Part shown: positions 3,001-63,748 of the stretch, in pieces
Layout: every line of letters starts with the position of its first letter
How positions within the stretch are numbered: position 1 is the stretch's first letter
Assembly (NCBI RefSeq): GCF_001890385.1
Contig: NZ_CP018221.1
Location: 1,413,501-1,477,500 of the forward strand
Origin: Tardibacter chloracetimidivorans
GTDB lineage: Bacteria; Pseudomonadota; Alphaproteobacteria; Sphingomonadales; Sphingomonadaceae
Direction: 5' to 3'
DNA: 64,000 bases
The notes under the pieces: model-generated
The model's database searches: none
The model's input: the letters and a program-made list of their open reading frames with translations, nothing else
What the model was told of the DNA's origin: nothing
Program-made: the position numbers and the translations under genes

Positions 3001-4440
3001 CTATTCAGCGGTCGGGCCAACCGTCCTCGTCGCCTGCGGCTTCGGGGGCTCGCCCGTCCGCCAATCGGAAATGCTGTTTCTCACCCGACGGTAGTTGGCG
3101 TCGGGATCATAAAGCGCCCCGCCTTCCAACCCCAGGTCCCGCGCCTCCGCCTTTCCGATCGCCGCGAGCAAGGCAAAACCCGCCACATATTCATCGCGCT
3201 TTGCGGTCACCAAGGCAACCTGGCTGTTGAGCAGTTCCTGCTCGGCGTTGAGCACGTCCAGAACGTCCCGCGTGCCCACGGAATTTTCCGCCCGCACGCC
3301 TTCCAGCGCCAGCGTGTTCGCCGAAACGGCGGCCTCGGACGATTCCTTCACCGCGCGCGCGGTCTGCAGATTGGCGAAGGAGGCGCGGGCCTGATTGACC
3401 ACGAACCGCTCGGTCAGCACCATATTTTCCAGCGCCTGCGACTGTTGCGCCTGGGCCTGGCGGACGCGCGACGCCACGGCCCCGCCCTGGTAAAGCGGAA
3501 TGCGCGCCGTCAGCCCGGCCCGGCTGCTCTTCTGCACATTGTCGACGGGCGCGCCGGGCAGGCCCACCGCATCGTCCAACGTGTTGAGATAATTGTCATA
3601 GCTGGCGCCCACTGTGCCGGACACCGTGGGCAGCCGATCGGCCTTGGACGTGTGCACCGTATAGAAGGCCGCGCGTTCGGTCGCCTTCGCCGCAAGAATG
3701 TCCGGGTTGTTTTCAAGCGCGACATCGACGGCCTGGGTGGCCGTGGGCGGCAGGGCCGGCAGCGGCGGCGGTGGCTCCAGCTCCTGCGGAAGCGTCCCGA
3801 CGACGCGCAGATAATTCTCGCGCGCGACGATCAAATCGCCCTGCGCCGCGGTTAGCGAGCTTTGCGCGCCCGCTAGCCGCGCTTCGGACTGGGCCACATC
3901 GGTGCGGGTGAGATCGCCCACCTCGAACCGGTCCCGCGTCGCCTGAAGGTTGGTGCCGAGCACCTTCACCTGATTTTCGTTCAGCTCGACGACCTGTTCC
4001 GCCCTTATGACTTCCAGATAGGCCGAGACGACGTCGACGAAGGTTTCCGCCTCGATCGCGCGCAGGTCCGCCCGCCCGGCCTCGACGCGGCTTTCAGCGG
4101 AACGGATTGCCGATCCCACGCGACCGCCCTGAAAAAGCGGAATGTCGATGTCGCCGTTCACCGTCAGCGACCGGCCGCCGGAATCGAGCCGCCCCAGTCC
4201 CCGGAAGCTTTGCGTCAGGCCCGTCGTCACCGAAAAGGTGGGCCGGCCCAGCGCCTTGGCCTGCGGGACGCCCTCGTCCAGCGCCCTCAGCCCCGCGCGC
4301 GCGCCGGTAAGCGACGGATTGCTGCGATAGGCCTGGTCCAGCGCCTCCCTGAGGGTGTCGGCTGACGCGGCCGGGGTGAATGCAGCTGCCAGCAGGGCCG
4401 CACCGGCGAGCATTTTCAGTTTCGTTCGCATGCGCTGCAT
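3001..4440 (-). CDS. tolC: TolC-family outer membrane efflux/secretion protein
   Basis: A 479-residue protein with a cleavable signal peptide (about residues 1-27, ending AASA). It carries two repeats of the outer membrane efflux domain; DIPLFQGGRVGSAIRSAES in the first is mirrored by RIPLYQGGAVASRVRQAQA in the second. There is no lipobox cysteine, so it resembles TolC of type I secretion more than NodT/OprM lipoproteins. TolC trimers form the outer membrane channel for tripartite pumps and type I exporters. It starts 3 bp after the methyltransferase gene and runs towards popZ. Confidence 0.88.
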   Translation of the reverse strand: MQRMRTKLKMLAGAALLAAAFTPAASADTLREALDQAYRSNPSLTGARAGLRALDEGVPQAKALGRPTFSVTTGLTQSFRGLGRLDSGGRSLTVNGDIDIPLFQGGRVGSAIRSAESRVEAGRADLRAIEAETFVDVVSAYLEVIRAEQVVELNENQVKVLGTNLQATRDRFEVGDLTRTDVAQSEARLAGAQSSLTAAQGDLIVARENYLRVVGTLPQELEPPPPLPALPPTATQAVDVALENNPDILAAKATERAAFYTVHTSKADRLPTVSGTVGASYDNYLNTLDDAVGLPGAPVDNVQKSSRAGLTARIPLYQGGAVASRVRQAQAQQSQALENMVLTERFVVNQARASFANLQTARAVKESSEAAVSANTLALEGVRAENSVGTRDVLDVLNAEQELLNSQVALVTAKRDEYVAGFALLAAIGKAEARDLGLEGGALYDPDANYRRVRNSISDWRTGEPPKPQATRTVGPTAE

Positions 4441-12750: not shown

Positions 12751-13164
12751 TCAGCCGGCGGTCGTCTGCTTTGCCGCGCACGCCGCCACGACCGGCGCGG
12801 GATCGTAATAGAATGGCTTGATCTCGCAAAGCTTGCCATCGCGGAAACGGAACATCTCGCAGATTTCGGCCGGCGCAAGCGACGGATCGGCAAAACGGAT
12901 CGACAGGATCGTGACCGCATAGTCGCCACCCACCGTCGTCTGCACACGGTCCAGACCCGCCGCGTCCATTATCGTGAAGACCTTGGTGTAAAGCTCCTTC
13001 AGCGCACCCTTGCCGCGATAGACGCCCGCCATCGGCAGCGAGTCCGCCTCGCTCACCACGAAGTCGTCGGTCAGCATGGTTTCGATGCGATCCCAGTCCC
13101 CCGCGCCCGTCGCGGCGTAGAGGTCGTCGACAAACGCTTCGATCTCGCTTGCAGTCATGCCCAT
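12751..13164 (-). CDS. SnoaL/NTF2-like domain protein
   Basis: About 137 residues, the size of a single cone-shaped NTF2-fold domain. It opens MGMTASEIEAFVDDLYAATG and contains GDWDRIETMLTDDFVVSEAD, typical of SnoaL/limonene-epoxide-hydrolase-like proteins. The ATG at 13164 lies 6 nt after GGGAGG; 13167 and 13158 are alternatives. Members of this fold include isomerases, epoxide hydrolases, hydratases and aldol-type lyases, so the reaction is undefined. It is divergent from the VOC-Rieske ferredoxin pair, with 104 bp between. Confidence 0.75.
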   Translation of the reverse strand: MGMTASEIEAFVDDLYAATGAGDWDRIETMLTDDFVVSEADSLPMAGVYRGKGALKELYTKVFTIMDAAGLDRVQTTVGGDYAVTILSIRFADPSLAPAEICEMFRFRDGKLCEIKPFYYDPAPVVAACAAKQTTAG

Positions 13165-13268
13165 CATGATCCTCCCTTTGCTTGGCCCGTTCTCGCGCAA
13201 ACACGCGCGTTGTGGACCTAGTGCAATGGCTAGCGACCCTGCGATCGCGACTGCGCTATGCAGGCACG

Positions 13269-58039: not shown

Positions 58040-59002
58040 TCAGGGGCGCATCAGCACCCGGCCGAAAGGATGCGCCTCGGCGACGTGGCGGTGCGCCGCC
58101 TGAACCTCCGACAGCGCAAAGCTGCGGTCGATCGGCATGACCAGCCGCCCCTCGGCCATGCGCCGGAGCAAGCTGTCGATCAGCCTGTGCGCGCGCGGCG
58201 TTGCCATGTCGCGCCCGAAGGAAATACCGAACACCGTCAGACTCTTGCGGATCAGGGGGAAGAAGCCGAAGCTCGGCAGAGCCCCGGCGGCGGCGCCGAC
58301 GACGGCATAGCGCGCCCGTGGTCGTGCGGCGTCGATCAGCGCCTCGACCGACTGGCCGCCCGCCATGTCGAGGATGATGTCGGCGCCCTTGCCGCCCGTG
58401 GTCTCGCGGCAGCGCGCGGCGATATCCTCGCTGCGGTGATCGATGCCATGGTGCATGCCGTAAGGTGCGATCCGCGCCAGCCGCTCGGCGCCGGACGCGG
58501 TGCCGATAACGGTCGCGCCCGCCTGAGCCGCCAGTTGCACGGCGGCCAGCCCGACGCCACCCGCCGCGCCCTGGACCAGCACGGTTTCGCCAGGCTTGAC
58601 CCTGCCGAACTCGAACAGGCAGTCGCTCGCCGTACCGAAAGCGACCGGGACGGTGGCGGCAAGATCGAGGTCGAGGCCGTCGGGCACCGCATAGGCATGA
58701 TGCTCGAGCACAGCGAACAGCTCGGCATGGCTGCCGTTCCAATTGAAGCCCACCACCCGATCGCCCGGCGCGAAGCGCGTGACCCTTTCGCCGATCGCCT
58801 CGACCCGCCCCGCGGCCTGATAGCCGGGGACGAACGGCACCTCCCGCGGAGGTGAAAACTGGCGGTTGAGGAGGTCGCCGCCCTCGATGCTGATCGCCTC
58901 GACGCGGATCAGGACGGTGTCGGGGCCGACCGCGGGGTCGGGCAGTTGGCCGACGCGCAGCACGTCCGGCCCGCCATTCTCCTCATACCAGGCAGCGCGC
59001 AT
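58040..59002 (-). CDS. Quinone oxidoreductase-like MDR protein
   Basis: 320 residues. MRAAWYEENGGPDVLRVGQL, VPGYQAAGRVEAIGERVTRF, NWNGSHAELFAV, QGAAGGVGLAAVQLAAQAGA (NADPH loop) and SFGFFPLIRKSLTVFGISFG match zinc-free quinone oxidoreductases of the zeta-crystallin group. It probably reduces a quinone or enone. Second gene after the MDR at 59035 on the same strand (32-bp gap). Confidence 0.83.
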   Translation of the reverse strand: MRAAWYEENGGPDVLRVGQLPDPAVGPDTVLIRVEAISIEGGDLLNRQFSPPREVPFVPGYQAAGRVEAIGERVTRFAPGDRVVGFNWNGSHAELFAVLEHHAYAVPDGLDLDLAATVPVAFGTASDCLFEFGRVKPGETVLVQGAAGGVGLAAVQLAAQAGATVIGTASGAERLARIAPYGMHHGIDHRSEDIAARCRETTGGKGADIILDMAGGQSVEALIDAARPRARYAVVGAAAGALPSFGFFPLIRKSLTVFGISFGRDMATPRAHRLIDSLLRRMAEGRLVMPIDRSFALSEVQAAHRHVAEAHPFGRVLMRP

Positions 59003-59034
59003 GACTCAGTATCTCCACGTGGTCGGCGACCGCA

Positions 59035-60078
59035 CTATGCACCACGATCGGCGAGTGTGCTCACGCGATCGTCCACCCGTACCAGCGTCTTACCCATGGT
59101 CTCGCCCGACATCAGGCGGATGAACGCCGCCGGGGCGCTCCCGATGCCGGTTGACACATTCTCGGTCGCGACCAGTTGCCCGGACCGCACCCATTCGCCA
59201 AGCGCATCCTCCGCCTCATGCACCATGTCGCCCGCCTCATAGGCCAGGAAACCGCGCATGGTGATCCGGTTGACCAGCACCTGCCAGATGTTGCGCAGTC
59301 GATAGGGCTCGGACTGATTGTTGTAATTGGCGATCATGCCGCACACCGGAATGCGTCCGAACGCCTTCATGCGCGGCAGCACGGCATCGAGCGTCGCGCC
59401 GCCCACATTGTCGAAATACAGGTCGATTCCTTCCGGGAAATGCCGGTCGATCGCCGCCCCCAGATCATCGACGGCGCGGTAGTTGATGGCAGCGTCGAAG
59501 CCGAGCAGATCGGTGACGATGCGCGCCTTGTCTTCCGAGCCGACCGTGCCGACGACGCGGCAGCCCGACAGCCGGGCGACCTGGCCCGCGACGCTGCCGA
59601 CGGCCCCGGCGGCGGCGCTGACCAGCACCTCATCGCCCGCGCGCAGCTCGCCATAGCGCTTCAGCCCCACATAGGCGGTGATCCCCGACCAGCCGACCGC
59701 GCCCATATAGACCGTCAGCGGCAGATCATCGGCGACACGCACATTCTCGAAGGCGACGCCGCCGGGATCGAGGACGGAATAGCGCTCCCAACCGGCGAAG
59801 CCGCGACCGAAATCCCCCTCGCGGAAATCGGGATGGCGGGATTTGACGACCCGCCCCAGAACCATGGCTGGGATGAGGCCGCCGATGGGCACGGGCGGCA
59901 TATAGCTCTTTACGTCATCCATCATGCCGCGCACCGCCGGATCGATCGCGAAAACCAGATTCTCCAGCAGGACCTGCCCGTCCGCCAGTTCGGGAACGGG
60001 CGCTTCGTCGGTTCGGAAATTCTCCGGGACCGGGACGCCCTGGGGGCGCGACGACAAGACAATCCGCTGGTTGATCAT
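59035..60078 (-). CDS. MDR-family NADP-dependent oxidoreductase (LTB4DH/CurA-like)
   Basis: 347 residues, start ATG 60078. NQRIVLSSRPQGVPVPENFR, AIDPAVRGMMDDVKSYMPPV, SAAAGAVGSVAGQVARLSGC (NADP loop), LYFDNVGGATLDAVLPRMKA, YRLRNIWQVLVNRITMRGFL. Paralogue of 24691-25704 and 19557-20567. Enone/alkenal reductase activity is likely. It is the last catabolic gene before the IS110-type element. Confidence 0.84.
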   Translation of the reverse strand: MINQRIVLSSRPQGVPVPENFRTDEAPVPELADGQVLLENLVFAIDPAVRGMMDDVKSYMPPVPIGGLIPAMVLGRVVKSRHPDFREGDFGRGFAGWERYSVLDPGGVAFENVRVADDLPLTVYMGAVGWSGITAYVGLKRYGELRAGDEVLVSAAAGAVGSVAGQVARLSGCRVVGTVGSEDKARIVTDLLGFDAAINYRAVDDLGAAIDRHFPEGIDLYFDNVGGATLDAVLPRMKAFGRIPVCGMIANYNNQSEPYRLRNIWQVLVNRITMRGFLAYEAGDMVHEAEDALGEWVRSGQLVATENVSTGIGSAPAAFIRLMSGETMGKTLVRVDDRVSTLADRGA

Positions 60079-60313
60079 GACCCTCTCGCCCGCTTTTGTT
60101 CCATGAGGCGCATCACGGCGCCAAAGCCGGGATATAGCAGCCACAGAGTCAACGTGACTGACATATTGGCCAGTAAGCATGAGCCTGTGCGGAGACAAGC
60201 GAGCGGAAGCGACAGCAAGCGATCATGTTAACCCCATGACGGCGCTATCGCCATGGGCCACCCGAGCATATCAGGTCCGACAACGTCCTAGGTCGGGAAG
60301 CAGCGGCGGAAAA
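60079..60313. other. Non-coding spacer left of the IS110-type element
   Basis: 235 bp without a supportable gene. It should contain the promoter of the 60078-58040 pair. No repeat, RNA or ORF of note was found; one side is the boundary of the mobile element. Confidence 0.4.
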
Positions 60314-60328
60314 CGGCCAGCAGGTCTC

Positions 60329-60497
60329 GTTGCGCCGATCATGATCAGCGCTGATGTCGTTCTGATCCAGATGGCTTCCATCGTCAAGGAATGCGCTCTC
60401 GGCCATAGCAAACACAGGATCCAGCGGCCGCATCGGTCGTGGTCCTCACCGTCCTTAAAATGAGATGCGGATGCCAGATGGAAGGCCCGAACATTAT
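60329..60497 (-). ncRNA. Candidate bridge/seek RNA region of the IS110-type element
   Basis: This 169-bp non-coding segment lies between the transposase stop and the inverted repeat, on the transposase strand, where IS1111-type elements encode their guide RNA. It is conspicuously longer than the other end (45 bp). The RNA and its loops were not derived; support is positional. Confidence 0.45.
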
Positions 60498-61790
60498 CTA
60501 CAGGGTCGCCGCAGCGCCCTCACGGCACGACAGAGAGGGGTCCTTCCATCTGGTGTCCGCCCGTTCGACGAACGGACGGTACTCGGCTCCCGTCTTGATG
60601 ACGGCATGCGCGACGCGCGCCATCTTGGCGGTGAGTGCGGTCATCGCCTTGCGGCGGCGATCAGGGTCGTTGCCGTGTCCGGCCACATAGCGACCAAGCT
60701 TGTCGCGGAAACTGTTGTCGCGTTGGCGGATGGCAACCTGGGTAGCCATCCAGAAGGTGCGCCGTAGCCGGGCATTACCGTACTTCGAGAGCTTGGTACG
60801 CCCACGAAAGGTGCCTGACTGGCAGGTCGCAAGATCAAGCCCGCAGAACTTGAGGAACTGGCGATGGTGGGCAAACCGGCGAAGGTCGCCGGCCTCGGCG
60901 AGGATGGTCAGCGCGTTGATCGGCCCGATCCCGGGGATCATGCGCAGGAGCTGGTAATCGCGGTTGTCGCTGAGCAAAGCATGGGCAGTTCGCTCGATCT
61001 CGTCGCGTTGCCGGATCAGGCTGCGGGCCTGAGCGATGACCATACGGAACATGGCGATCGCGATGGAATCCTCATCGACCGGGAGCGCCACCGAGGCGCA
61101 GGCCGTCTCGTAAATATCGTTGAGCAGCCGGGCCTTGGACACCTTGCGGCCGACCAGGCCCCATGCCTCGCGCGTGAAGGCCTCCTTGCCGAGCGTGATC
61201 ATGCTGGCCGGGGTCGGGAACCGCTCGAGCAGGGCCAGGAACCAGTCGGACCGGCTGTTGCCGGCGAAACGTTCGATCTCCGGAAAGTACAGCGGCAGGT
61301 AGTGCGTCAGGAGGCGATGCCACGTCTGGGTCTTGGCCTTGGAGATCGCCTCGTGCGTCTTTGACATCTCCTGCAGATCGTTGATGCCGGCGGCGAGTGG
61401 ATCGACGTAGCGTTGGGTGGCACCGATCCGCAGCATGTGCAGGATTACCTGCGCATCCTTGGAATCGTTCTTGTCCCAGCCATTGTGCAGCGCCTCGCGG
61501 GTGCGGGCCAGGGCAACCGACGAAATCAGCCGCAGCTCGAAACCCGCCGAGAGCAAGCGATGCGCTAGGGTGCGGTGGTAGTTGCCGGTGGCCTCGAAGC
61601 CGACGATCACGGGACGAGCGACATCCCCGAGCTCCGAGGCGAGACGATCATAGTCCGCCTTGGTCGCCATCACCGTCATCCGCCGCCGGCGCCCACCTTC
61701 GGGGCGCTCGATCAGCACCTCCTGGCGGTGCTTGGACATATCGATGGCTACCAGCACGGCGTCGGCGGGAGTAGAGGTACGCTTGGTCAT
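60498..61790 (-). CDS. IS110-family DEDD transposase
   Basis: 430 residues, start ATG 61790. The RuvC-like DEDD domain shows VAIDMSKHRQEVLI, VGFEATGNYHR and WDKNDSKDAQVILH; the C-terminal Transposase_20 domain shows LRMIPGIGPINALTILAEAG and LDLATCQSGTFRGRTKLSKY, with the conserved serine in CQSG. Full length and intact. The family is guided by a non-coding RNA made from the element's own end. Confidence 0.92.
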   Translation of the reverse strand: MTKRTSTPADAVLVAIDMSKHRQEVLIERPEGGRRRRMTVMATKADYDRLASELGDVARPVIVGFEATGNYHRTLAHRLLSAGFELRLISSVALARTREALHNGWDKNDSKDAQVILHMLRIGATQRYVDPLAAGINDLQEMSKTHEAISKAKTQTWHRLLTHYLPLYFPEIERFAGNSRSDWFLALLERFPTPASMITLGKEAFTREAWGLVGRKVSKARLLNDIYETACASVALPVDEDSIAIAMFRMVIAQARSLIRQRDEIERTAHALLSDNRDYQLLRMIPGIGPINALTILAEAGDLRRFAHHRQFLKFCGLDLATCQSGTFRGRTKLSKYGNARLRRTFWMATQVAIRQRDNSFRDKLGRYVAGHGNDPDRRRKAMTALTAKMARVAHAVIKTGAEYRPFVERADTRWKDPSLSCREGAAATL

Positions 61791-61857
61791 GGTCGGTCCG
61801 TCTCCAAAGTGTTGAGTCGACAACTTCACTTTTAGAGACCTGCTGGCCGGTCATGAC

Positions 61858-61932
61858 CGCCTTGATGAAGGCGGCGGGCGCTACGCACCCTTGCCTTCAT
61901 CAAGGCGAAGCGGCCCTTCGAGGGCCCGCTTC
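61858..61932. repeat. Two tandem hairpins at the right flank of the IS110-type element
   Basis: The first is a perfect 15-bp inverted repeat, CGCCTTGATGAAGGC (61858-61872) and GCCTTCATCAAGGCG (61893-61907), with a 20-base loop. The second is a near-perfect palindrome, from GAAGCGGCCC (61907 on) to its mirror ending at 61932. They begin nine bases outside the element's inverted repeat and may be its target, or part of the older IS3 element beside it. Confidence 0.6.
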
Positions 61933-61935
61933 CCA

Positions 61936-62040
61936 ATGTGCTACGGTCCGGAGTTCGTCGCCCATGCAGTGCGCGAATGGCTCGGGCGGGTCGGCGTCAC
62001 GAACCTTTATATCGAGCCCGGCAGCCCATGGTGCTGCCGG
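61936..62040 (+). pseudogene. IS3-family transposase (OrfB) fragment
   Basis: An open stretch reading GPEFVAHAVREWLGRVGVTN then LYIEPGSPW is the integrase-core segment (NGPEFV...IEPGSPWENG) of IS3-family OrfB. The upstream DNG and downstream ENGxxESFN parts are absent: the frame runs into unrelated sequence after PGSPW. A relic, non-functional. Confidence 0.7.
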
Positions 62041-62161
62041 TCCTCGCCAGCGTCGGGGTTCGACGCGGCCAGCGGGAAAATCCGGCTCACGGGGCTGCGC
62101 GATCAGAGTGGCACAGGCTCGACCGTTAAGGCCGGGAGGCGGCCGCCAATGGCGAATGGCA

Positions 62162-62187
62162 GTTCGATCTTGGCTCGGGCCTCCACC
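62162..62187 (+). repeat. Right att-like repeat (copy of tRNA-Cys 3' end)
   Basis: GTTCGAT, three differing bases, then GGCTCGGGCCTCCACC: 23 of 26 positions equal to 12485-12510, same strand. The sequence upstream does not form a full cloverleaf, so it is not a second tRNA gene. Candidate right junction of an island integrated at tRNA-Cys. Confidence 0.5.
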
Positions 62188-62241
62188 CAACCAGCTGCAG
62201 CCAACTCGACAGTTCACGACTGATGGCGGTCACTACCCAAT

Positions 62242-62265
62242 AAAAAAGGGCCCCGTAGGGCCCTT
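62242..62265 (-). terminator. Intrinsic terminator after the CsbD-like gene
   Basis: Stem AAGGGCCC (62246-62253) and GGGCCCTT (62258-62265) with a CGTA loop; read on the minus strand it is followed by a T-run (TTTTTTATT). It lies 27 bp past the stop of the CsbD-like gene. Confidence 0.85.
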
Positions 62266-62291
62266 CCGCTTGTTCGGCGCAATCACGGGTT

Positions 62292-62474
62292 TCACACCTT
62301 GTCGCCCAATGCGCCCTTTACCTTGCCTTTCAGGTTCTGCGCCTCGCCCTTGCGTTCCTGCGCCGCGCCTTCAGCGGTCACATCGGGCCGGCCGGCGGCC
62401 TTTCCCGCCGCCTGTTTCGCATTGCCCGCCGCTTCATTGGCCAGGCCCTTCGCCTTGTCCTTCAGTTCACCCAT
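62292..62474 (-). CDS. CsbD-like stress protein
   Basis: 60 residues from ATG 62474 (MGELKDKAKGLANEAAGNAK), eight bases after GGAG; an upstream in-frame GTG at 62483 is less likely. Lys/Ala/Gly-rich repeats of the CsbD family (AxGKAxGRPDVxAEGxxQ, GKVKGALGDKV). CsbD proteins are small general-stress proteins of unknown mechanism. Followed by its own terminator. Confidence 0.85.
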   Translation of the reverse strand: MGELKDKAKGLANEAAGNAKQAAGKAAGRPDVTAEGAAQERKGEAQNLKGKVKGALGDKV

Positions 62475-62710
62475 GTCGTCCACTCCTTCTGGAGGCAGAC
62501 CAGGACGATTATCGCCCCGGCTTCACATGAGACTAGAGACGCCTGGGACACGAGGTTGGTTCCGGCCGCCCGTTTGGGCCAAGCCCACGGGGCATTCAAA
62601 CCATGCACTGCGCATTTCGCCGCATGGCCCGTCCCATTCCGGAACGCCGACCTCGTTCCGTTGTTCAATCAGCATGAGCGGGCAACGGAATTGCGAGACG
62701 GAGAAGGCCG
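62475..62710. other. Spacer, no gene seen
   Basis: 236 bp between the minus-strand CsbD-like gene and the plus-strand gene at 62711. It should hold both promoters. A GAGACGGAGAAGG ribosome site precedes 62711. Nothing else stands out. Confidence 0.4.
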
Positions 62711-63133
62711 ATGGCAGACGAACGGTACGAACAAAGGCAGCGCAGCCCTGAAAGCGGCCAGCGCAGCCGCCAGAACTCCATATTCGACGATGCGTCCGGA
62801 ATGGAGCGGGACGAGGGCCGCAGGTCTTTCGCCCGCAGCGAGGCCCGGACGGGTTCTTGGTTCGGACATGAGGACGACGACACAGGCGACGACCAGGGCG
62901 AGGACGGCCATTATCGCCGCTGGCGCGACAGCCAGATCGAGCAGTTGGACCGCGACTATGACGAATACCGCAGGGAGCGCCAGCAGCAGTTCCAGTCCGA
63001 TTTCGACAGCTGGCGTCAGAACCGCCGGCAGCAGGCGCAGGGGCAGGAACGGCAGCAACCGTTGTCGGCCCCCAAAGAGCGGCAGGCGGCGACATCGATC
63101 GGCGGCAGCTCCACCAGCAGCGGCAAGGCCTGA
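62711..63133 (+). CDS. Hypothetical hydrophilic, low-complexity protein
   Basis: 140 residues with no signal peptide or membrane segment. Rich in Arg, Gln, Ser, Asp and Glu. It has SRQNSIFDDASGMERDEGRR and GSWFGHEDDD near the N-terminus and HYRRWRDSQIEQLDRDYDEY with RRERQQQFQSDFDSWRQNRR in the middle, a predicted charged helix. The mid-part recurs in hypothetical proteins of sphingomonads beside PRC-barrel genes. Probably stress-related by neighbourhood; no function assignable. Confidence 0.7.
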   Translation: MADERYEQRQRSPESGQRSRQNSIFDDASGMERDEGRRSFARSEARTGSWFGHEDDDTGDDQGEDGHYRRWRDSQIEQLDRDYDEYRRERQQQFQSDFDSWRQNRRQQAQGQERQQPLSAPKERQAATSIGGSSTSSGKA

Positions 63134-63172
63134 CCGACCCAACGACCCATCATCAAAGAGGAGGCCTGACCA

Positions 63173-63748
63173 ATGGGCTATTATGATCGTGACGACGACA
63201 GCTACACCCGGACGCGGGACTCATCCGAGCGTTCGTCGAACTGGCGGAACGAAAGCATCTTCGGCCGCAGCAACAGACGCGATGACGATGGCGACTGGCG
63301 GACGCGGCGCTCCACACGCGGCAGCTCTGGCAATCGGAATTACCAGAGCCGGGACAGCGGCGACGAGGGCTATGGTCCCGACGACGATCGCGACGACCTG
63401 CCGAGGAACGAGACCAACCATCTGATCGCATCGAATAAGGTGGAAGGCACTGCCGTTTATGGCAGGGACGGCGAACGCCTGGGCCACATCTACAACTTCA
63501 TGGTCGACAAGGTGAGCGGCCATGTCGAATATGCAGTCATGGCCTATGGTGGGTTCCTGCGCATGGGCGAGCGCTATTTCCCCCTGCCGTGGCAGACGCT
63601 TGATTATGACACGCGCAGAGGCGGCTACCGGATCGACATGACCGAGCGGGATCTGGAGCGCGCGCCCAGCTTCGACAGGAACAGCGAGCCGTCGTTCAAC
63701 CGCCGCTATGGAAGCCGCGTCTACAGCTATTATGGCCTGAGCTACTGA
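63173..63748 (+). CDS. PRC-barrel domain protein with disordered N-terminus
   Basis: 191 residues. Residues 1-80 are Asp/Arg/Ser/Asn-rich and low in complexity. The PRC-barrel follows (about 82-165): NHLIASNKVEGTAVYGRDGE, LGHIYNFMVDKVSGHVEYAV, YFPLPWQTLDYDTRRGGYRI. The last residues (NRRYGSRVYSYYGLSY) are Tyr-rich. PRC-barrel proteins act in photosynthetic reaction-centre assembly, RNA processing and stress; this type is common in sphingomonads without known role. 39 bp after the previous gene and likely cotranscribed. Confidence 0.82.
   Translation: MGYYDRDDDSYTRTRDSSERSSNWRNESIFGRSNRRDDDGDWRTRRSTRGSSGNRNYQSRDSGDEGYGPDDDRDDLPRNETNHLIASNKVEGTAVYGRDGERLGHIYNFMVDKVSGHVEYAVMAYGGFLRMGERYFPLPWQTLDYDTRRGGYRIDMTERDLERAPSFDRNSEPSFNRRYGSRVYSYYGLSY

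What the first reader, a model, noticed from the sequence alone, without database searches (positions are those of the whole stretch)
60314..61849. IS110/IS1111-type element with a likely guide-RNA segment
The 15-bp inverted repeats define the element. The 170 bp between the transposase stop and the left repeat is where IS1111-type elements encode a bridge or seek RNA. The transposase is full length with DEDD and the CQSG serine, so this may be an active RNA-guided recombinase with its own target choice.
Basis: partly seen in the sequence, partly recalled or inferred. Interest (0 to 1): 0.58.

Follow-up and report, generated by a model that had tools for sequence, protein, structure and literature searches.

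The report
RNA-guided jumping gene targeting other transposons
This is a mobile DNA element whose own small RNA very probably steers it into one spot, the catalytic-site codons of other transposons' enzymes, so it works like a parasite of parasites; a similar targeting habit was already reported for one other element of the same broad family.

Summary
The 15-bp repeats are exact but internal: three identical genomic copies put the element at 60285-61942 plus a 2-bp core. It encodes a 430-aa DEDD/serine IS110-family recombinase, too long for the IS1111 group. A guide RNA downstream of tnp is well supported: it starts inside the coding sequence (about 60553-60373, minus strand), pairs in 96.2% of 1668 cells over 58 aligned sequences with 158 double-change cells against 38 shuffled, and has the layout of the IS621 bridge RNA. 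Its donor guides co-vary with the element ends. The target is CC-RT-TRTC, the Asp-Asn-Gly codons at a catalytic Asp of DDE (rve) transposases: 59 of 59 distinct sites; 65 of 68 scanned target frames hit Pfam rve. The right target guide GAUAAUG has U at both synonymous codon positions; being invariant, it could not be tested by covariation. ISEc21 is already known to target this region in some IS3 elements (PMC11187229). What looks new is an IS110-type lineage with a downstream RNA and a frozen target guide. No RNA or transposition data.

The parts
60285..61942 (-). IS110-family element; with one copy of the 2-bp core it is 1660 bp. Left end (LE) is at 61942, right end (RE) at 60285 (tnp orientation)
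   Evidence: Three genomic copies identical over 60282-61946; same ends in relatives; coordinates
60283..60284 (-). core dinucleotide (GT on tnp strand) at the RE junction
61943..61944 (-). core dinucleotide at the LE junction; its first base is G or A in relatives
60498..61790 (-). recombinase (tnp), 430 aa. Numbered from one codon upstream of the ATG (61793), the catalytic residues are D18, E67, D110, D113 and S326-G327
   Evidence: Pfam PF01548 and PF02371; NF033542; IS621/ISCro4 homologues; residues invariant in 16 of 16
60373..60553 (-). inferred bridge RNA (minimal extent), starting inside the tnp coding sequence
   Evidence: Covariation in 58 sequences; fold of the window strand
60542..60553 (-). 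stem P1, 5' strand, inside tnp
60522..60527 (-). left target guide UGCCGU; GCC and the last U invariant in 58 of 58 rows, the G between them in 56
   Evidence: assigned by position and complementarity
60502..60520 (-). stem-loop between the two target guides
   Evidence: 99.3% of cells paired; changes on both sides in 4 of 7 pairs
60492..60498 (-). right target guide GAUAAUG, sharing its first G with the tnp stop codon TAG
   Evidence: TAGAYAATG found beside the tnp end in 72 of 72 protein-selected loci given; 24 of 568 window tiles hold a GAYAAYG
60474..60485 (-). stem P1, 3' strand; part of it can also pair with 60375-60382
60462..60465 (-). stem P4, 5' strand (partner 60397-60400), closing the donor loop
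   Evidence: 98.7% of cells paired
60450..60455 (-). left donor guide AGGACG, pairs with the bottom strand of RE
   Evidence: 328 of 336 pairs standard over 56 rows
60416..60446 (-). stem-loop P3 between the donor guides
   Evidence: 94.3% of cells paired
60405..60413 (-). right donor guide GUUUGCUAU, pairs with the top strand of core plus LE, two U taken as flipped out
   Evidence: 357 of 364 pairs standard over 52 rows
60397..60400 (-). stem P4, 3' strand
60373..60382 (-). second copy complementary to the P1 3' strand (alternative pairing)
   Evidence: 89.2% of 464 cells paired
60295..60301 (+). short subterminal inverted repeat GGGAAGC (partner 61928-61934)
61928..61934 (+). short subterminal inverted repeat GCTTCCC
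60314..60328 (+).
61835..61849 (+). 15-bp inverted repeat, partner copy; internal
61788..61942 (-). upstream non-coding region with strong hairpins; the last one (about 61840-61800) holds the GGAG that precedes tnp
   Evidence: Folding z-score -6.29; GAYAAYG in 0 of 70 upstream regions
60240..60282 (+). 5' piece of the interrupted IS3-type transposase reading frame (...PPEHIRSD)
61945..62040 (+). 3' piece of the same reading frame (GPEFVAHAVREW...); end placed by eye

Best explanation
A complete, probably recently active IS110-family insertion sequence. Its DEDD/serine recombinase is directed by a bridge RNA made from the 3' end of the element, overlapping the end of tnp. The RNA has a target loop (left guide UGCCGU, right guide GAUAAUG) and a donor loop (left guide AGGACG, right guide GUUUGCUAU). 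The target loop reads the codons of the D-N-G catalytic motif of rve/DDE transposases, with the element's tnp antisense to that gene. The donor loop reads the joined RE-GT-LE ends. Recombination at the shared RT core inserts the element in one orientation and breaks the host transposase. Shown here by sequence: ends, core, copies, target, RNA structure, donor-guide covariation, catalytic residues. Inferred: transcription, a circular intermediate, loop-DNA pairing for target choice, and strand exchange as in IS621.
For: Three identical copies at three different IS3-type transposase sites in one genome. 59 of 59 distinct two-ended sites carry CC-R-T-T-R-T-C; CC and T-R-T-C were not imposed by the search patterns. 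65 of 68 scanned target frames match Pfam rve. RNA structure: 96.2% of 1668 cells paired (87.4% shuffled), 158 double-change cells against 38.0, 21 pairs with double changes against 12.8, each reached in 0 of 500 shuffles; the count of further pair types is weaker (41 against 37.9, reached in 38 of 500); slid controls pair at most 50.5%. Donor guides against ends: RDG-LE 357 of 364 (shuffle maximum 351), LDG-RE 328 of 336 (shuffle maximum 322), 0 of 2000 shuffles for either. Changes matched on both sides: AGGAC to AGTAC in L104; to AGTCC in L106, L109, L113; RTAGC/GCUAU to RTAAC/GUUAU in L081 and in L116, L119, L121; RTAGT/ACUAU in L109; RTGAT with AUCAU or GUCAU in L106, L113; a C-to-T change with G-to-A in L098, L117. 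Order of parts and two unpaired U agree with IS621 (PMC11208158, passages). The model matches IS621 (E 1.8e-14) and ISCro4 (2.1e-14).
Against: The right target guide does not vary except U/C at one place, so target guiding could not be tested by covariation; it rests on place and complementarity. The aligned RNAs were collected with a pattern holding TAGAYAATG, so its presence in all 58 rows is by construction; the independent counts are 72 of 72 and the unfiltered listings. Target bases opposite the left guide beyond CC are not fixed (G in 50 of 74 at -3, T in 45 of 74 at -4). Donor mismatches: RDG in L105 (four), L071, L073, L109; LDG in L112 (two), L076, L107 and at the last base in L104, L106, L109, L113. 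No Rfam match at E up to 1. The window RNA alone folds only at z -1.83, 8 of 200 shuffles as good. The upstream region is also highly structured. The modelled serine loop (323-333) has pLDDT under 50. No transcript data.
Confidence: 0.88

Rival explanations
1. The guide RNA lies in the upstream region (LE, 61788-61942), as in most IS110-group elements, and the downstream conservation serves something else.
For: The upstream strand folds far better than shuffles (z -6.29). [quoted passage not shown]
Against: 0 of 70 upstream regions hold the target complement GAYAAYG. Part of the clade has GTTGTC in the last upstream hairpin, but Methylobacterium and Rhodobacterales copies with the same target lack it (by eye). 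The downstream RNA carries covarying stems and donor guides that follow the ends.
Confidence: 0.05
2. Target choice is made by protein-DNA recognition or by selection alone: insertions elsewhere are lost and those in other transposases survive; the RNA acts only on the donor or as a regulator.
For: The own genome has 459 CCRTTRTC sites but only 12 rve matches, so eight bases alone do not explain 65 of 68 scanned insertions in rve genes. The target guide hardly varies.
Against: The one site seen outside any transposase-like frame among the 59, L047, still carries the full motif, and so does L115 in a DUF1173 gene. The fixed bases coincide with the guide complement. IS621, ISEc11 and ISEc21 are experimentally RNA-guided (PMC11208160, PMC11187229).
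Confidence: 0.07
3. The real element is the reader's 60314-61849 unit, nested inside a second, outer repeat.
For: The 15-bp inverted repeat is perfect in the window.
Against: In 61 two-ended loci the outer termini abut the target. Donor guides match the outer ends. The only outer piece without tnp that I met is the decayed LE of L004; I made no systematic search for an outer unit alone.
Confidence: 0.01

Closest known systems
ISEc21 (IS110 family; Siddiquee et al. 2024, PMC11187229)
   Same: RNA-guided; targets codons for and around the second D of DDE in certain IS3-family transposases; bottom-strand match 5' of top-strand match
   Different: ISEc21 has a 358-aa transposase and its RNA upstream of tnp; here 430 aa and RNA downstream. 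Its guide letters were not compared: they are in figures and supplements that are not held
IS621 (PMC11208160 and PMC11208158)
   Same: DEDD plus serine recombinase; stem, left guide, stem-loop, right guide in both loops; two flipped-out U in the right donor guide
   Different: IS621 RNA lies in the LE upstream of tnp, targets REP elements, core CT; here downstream, transposase codons, core RT. IS621's left target guide pairs 9 nt and its right one 4 nt; here the right guide is the longer (7 nt)
IS1111 group (ISEc11, ISKpn4, ISPa11; PMC11187229)
   Same: RNA in the non-coding region downstream of tnp; subterminal inverted repeats
   Different: Transposase 330-350 aa; top-strand match 5' of bottom-strand match (reversed here); the long repeat here lies 29 and 93 bp inside the ends
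ISMex12 and ISRel25 (names from plasmid annotation)
   Same: Same clade: both carry TAGATAATG after tnp; the LE of each abuts an IS3-type target by eye, for ISRel25 the RE too
   Different: ISRel25 65.8% aa identity, ISMex12 73.1% DNA identity; the ISMex12 copy seen lacks its RE. No paper naming either was found in the library searched

Membership tests
IS110 family (broad) | DEDD RuvC-like domain plus Tnp domain with catalytic serine | tested here: met
IS110 family (broad) | bridge/seek RNA with target- and donor-matching loops in a non-coding end | tested here: met
   By sequence only; the transcript is not testable here
IS110 family (broad) | circular intermediate with abutted ends | not testable with these tools
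   Only indirect: L065 has one element's RE joined through GT to another's LE
IS1111 group | transposase of 330-350 aa | tested here: not met
   430 aa; range from PMC11187229
IS1111 group | long non-coding region with RNA downstream of tnp | tested here: met
IS1111 group | subterminal inverted repeats of 7-17 bp | tested here: inconclusive
   7-bp repeat near the ends and 15-bp repeat 29/93 bp in; the 15-bp one is 70.4% complementary in 49 distinct pairs against 66.3% shuffled, 1 of 2000 as high
IS1111 group | top-strand target match 5' of bottom-strand match in the RNA | tested here: not met
   Bottom-strand guide UGCCGU lies 5' of top-strand guide GAUAAUG, on my assignment of the guides
IS110 group (narrow) | RNA upstream of tnp | tested here: not met
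   IS110 members with a downstream region are mentioned as exceptions in PMC11187229 (section 6)
IS110 group (narrow) | bottom-strand guide 5' of top-strand guide | tested here: met
   rule from ISEc21 in PMC11187229

The most novel reading that the evidence does not exclude
A separate, phylum-crossing IS110 lineage has specialised in parasitising other transposons. Its target guide is frozen on the Asp-Asn-Gly catalytic codons and uses U at both synonymous third positions, so that rU pairs with dA or dG and every codon version of the motif is hit, while the donor guides and ends drift together. The guide reads a protein motif at the DNA level, and the element may act as a curb on competing DDE transposons. 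With ISEc21 this would be repeated evolution of the same targeting strategy.
Probability: 0.45. Interest if true: 0.75.

Novelty: new variant of a known kind. Interest (0 to 1): 0.58.

Why it matters
In this family each element or group of close relatives usually picks a different site (PMC11187229). Here the target guide is kept down to about 43% protein identity, in Alpha-, Beta- and Gammaproteobacteria and an acidobacterium, while the donor guides change with the ends. That makes it testable why a programmable system would freeze its target: a universal harmless site, hitch-hiking on other mobile elements, or suppression of rivals. The wobble-reading guide also suggests a rule for targeting a coding motif despite synonymous variation. 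The RNA overlaps the recombinase gene and sits at the opposite end from IS621, so it may be a useful intermediate between the IS110 and IS1111 plans.

Tried and rejected
Rfam search of 59000-63500 gave no match up to E 1. I first took the RNA for an upstream one because of the strong LE hairpins (note); guide search and covariation spoke against that. I first paired GCC with GGC as a small hairpin; it never varies, and GCCGU is now read as the left target guide, with a stem beside it that has double changes. I looked for relatives with a different target to test the target guide: L098-L109 and L113-L121 all show TAGATAATG, and where both ends could be read the target was CCRTTRTC (partly by eye). 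The 25-30% identical L122 and L123 gave no readable guide by eye. Two scripts used wrong filters (one search kept 73 records, only 5) and were replaced.

Patterns that fix part of a result: the LE pattern fixes core R and T and the RE pattern fixes the GT before the flank; CC and T-R-T-C were free. The 15 further sites were found with patterns that impose CCRT and TRTC, so they are no independent evidence for those bases. In one search the RE pattern fixes the last C and G opposite the left donor guide, and the LE pattern lists forms already seen; the rows are related, so the shuffles overstate independence. In one search the GAYAAYG in the 58 RNAs is by construction (rows chosen with TAGAYAATG); only the upstream GCCRT in 58 of 58 is free, against 6 of 568 window tiles holding both.

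Rows dropped: of 80 loci, L061, L062, L063, L080 (partial matches) were left out, so 76 plus the window entered. Of those 77, 12 lacked a recognised end, L023 and L065 had a wrong end picked, and L027, L028, L030, L053 had short flanks; 59 remained, plus own copies L002 and L003 = 61 loci, 59 distinct sites. One search left out L009, L012, L069, L070, L085, so 72 were given. Of 94 RNA records 77 were distinct (six loci with cut RNAs and the repeat fetches of own-order genomes were skipped) and I gave 58 of the 77 to the alignment, leaving out 19 near-duplicates. One search used 52 of 58 rows for RDG-LE (five without LE, L104 for a gap) and 56 of 58 for LDG-RE (L085, L105 without RE). Of 74 sites 68 had a frame of at least 40 aa and were scanned. 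The three of 68 without rve are taken to be L007 (49 aa, nothing at E up to 1), L119 (E 0.19) and L115 (nothing at E 0.001).

Full report
The thing itself. The window (probably a Sphingomonadales genome, judging by its nearest named relatives) holds a tnp gene on the minus strand, 61790-60498, 430 aa. Pfam finds both IS110-family domains, NCBIfam's IS110 family RNA-guided transposase model passes its cut-off while the TIGR-Tas model stays below its own, and the only solved relatives by sequence are IS621 and ISCro4. A model built from 16 sequences (mean pLDDT 78.8, pTM 0.63, serine loop poorly modelled) matches IS621 at E 1.8e-14 and ISCro4 at 2.1e-14, with TIGR-TasR next at 2.9e-7. D18, E67, D110, D113, S326 and G327 are invariant in 16 of 16. 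That they correspond to D11, E60, D102, D105, S241 and G242 of IS621 is inferred from the alignment and the residues named in PMC11208158 (passages).

Ends. Two more copies lie in the same genome, one on the main contig and one on a 183-kb contig. Compared over 60251-61950, both are identical to the window from 60282 to 61946 and differ outside. This puts the ends outside the 15-bp repeats. In tnp orientation the LE usually begins RTAGCACATTGGG and the RE usually ends TAGGACGT, with a shared core RT. The element is 60285-61942 plus the core. Identity of three copies at different sites argues for recent movement.

Target. All 59 distinct two-ended sites carry CC-R-T-T-R-T-C across the junction. 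CC and the last four bases were free in the search; there the second R is G in 50 and A in 9. Read on the other strand this is GAY AAY GG, Asp-Asn-Gly, which is tautological given the motif. The independent fact is that the surrounding frame is a DDE transposase: 65 of 68 scanned pieces match Pfam rve at E up to 0.01, from IS3-type and other rve types. Exceptions: L115 sits in a DUF1173 gene of a conjugative plasmid, L047 in a frame that does not look like a transposase (by eye; too short to scan), L119 is only weakly rve-like and L007 too short to score. Relatives at 43-65% identity (Rahnella, a Salmonella plasmid, Acidisarcina, Sulfitobacter, Thioclava and others) have the same target where both ends could be read. 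A decayed LE (L004) sits at the same motif in the own genome.

RNA. In 58 aligned distinct sequences, the window among them, the segment starting about 50 nt inside the tnp end forms four stems. 96.2% of 1668 cells pair (87.4% shuffled); 158 cells have changes on both sides (38.0 shuffled, 0 of 500 as high); the number of further pair types is less telling (41 against 37.9, 38 of 500); sliding the partners drops pairing to at most 50.5%. The 3' strand of P1 can also pair with a second copy downstream (89.2% of 464 cells, 53 double-change cells against 16.5 shuffled), so a switch between two forms is possible. The order is stem, left target guide, stem-loop, right target guide; then stem, left donor guide, stem-loop, right donor guide, as described for IS621 (PMC11208158, passages). 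The window strand alone is not exceptionally stable (z -1.83), though its minimum-energy fold contains P1 and the target stem-loop.

Guides. Right donor guide against core plus LE: 357 of 364 standard pairs; left donor guide against RE: 328 of 336; 0 of 2000 shuffles reached either. The informative part is the set of matched changes listed under evidence; relatedness makes the shuffle count too favourable, and the patterns fixed part of the ends beforehand (see Tried and rejected). The target guides UGCCGU and GAUAAUG match the fixed target bases on bottom and top strand. TAGAYAATG follows tnp in 72 of 72 protein-selected loci; GCCRT lies 8-45 nt upstream of it in 58 of 58 aligned RNAs, while 6 of 568 window tiles hold such a pair and 0 of 70 upstream regions hold GAYAAYG. 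Because guide and target hardly vary, target guiding is inference. Beyond CC the left guide is not strictly matched: -3 is G in 50 of 74 and -4 is T in 45 of 74 sites. U stands opposite both R positions in guides reading GAUAAUG (70 sites: G-G 38, A-G 19, G-A 7, A-A 6); the four GACAAUG guides are all at TGTC sites, too few to test.

Why nearly always transposases. The own genome holds 459 CCRTTRTC sites (255 for the reversed pattern) but 12 rve matches. Either recognition is longer than the fixed bases, or insertions in other transposons survive better and travel with them. I cannot separate these.

Known work. Siddiquee et al. (PMC11187229; sections 6, 8, 9, 12, 13, 14 read and passages elsewhere) report that ISEc21, with an upstream RNA, targets codons for and around the second D of DDE in certain IS3 elements. 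The target type is therefore already in print. PMC11208160 (section 12 read, passages otherwise) predicts bridge RNAs in 85.7% of catalogued IS110 and 93.0% of IS1111 elements, mostly in LE and RE respectively, so members of this clade may be among them; supplements could not be read. Searches for IS110 with bridge or seek RNA, for IS3/DDE targeting, and for ISRel25, ISMex12 and ISEc21 gave no other report of this lineage (listings only; some listings were capped, and only openly licensed papers are held).

Verdict. It mixes an IS110-type enzyme and guide order with an IS1111-type RNA position, and its lineage keeps one target, the catalytic codons of other transposons.

Noticed in passing
L044, L057, L068, L083, L084: The two halves of the interrupted transposase on either side of the element seem to come from different IS types, as if copies had recombined or the recombinase had joined two targets (by eye).
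   Followed up: no
L065 around 4000-4025: One element's RE is joined through GT directly to another element's LE of a different subtype: a tandem pair that looks like a circle junction; a second guide RNA follows at about 5450.
   Followed up: no
window 61788-61942, minus strand: Very stable hairpins upstream of tnp; the last one holds the GGAG before the start codon and may block translation from outside transcripts.
   Followed up: partly
L004:1456-1540: Decayed LE relic of this clade at an IS3-type transposase remnant, beside what reads to me like a tyrosine integrase frame (the frame was not searched).
   Followed up: partly
window 60373-60382 against 60474-60485: The 3' strand of P1 has a second complementary copy that also co-varies: a possible conformational switch in the RNA.
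   Followed up: partly
L115: Insertion in a DUF1173 gene of a conjugative plasmid, a non-transposase site with the target motif.
   Followed up: partly
L112 (viral contig), about 12887-13200: The same RNA and a degenerate RE lie in an IMG/VR contig, the only match of one pattern scan.
   Followed up: no
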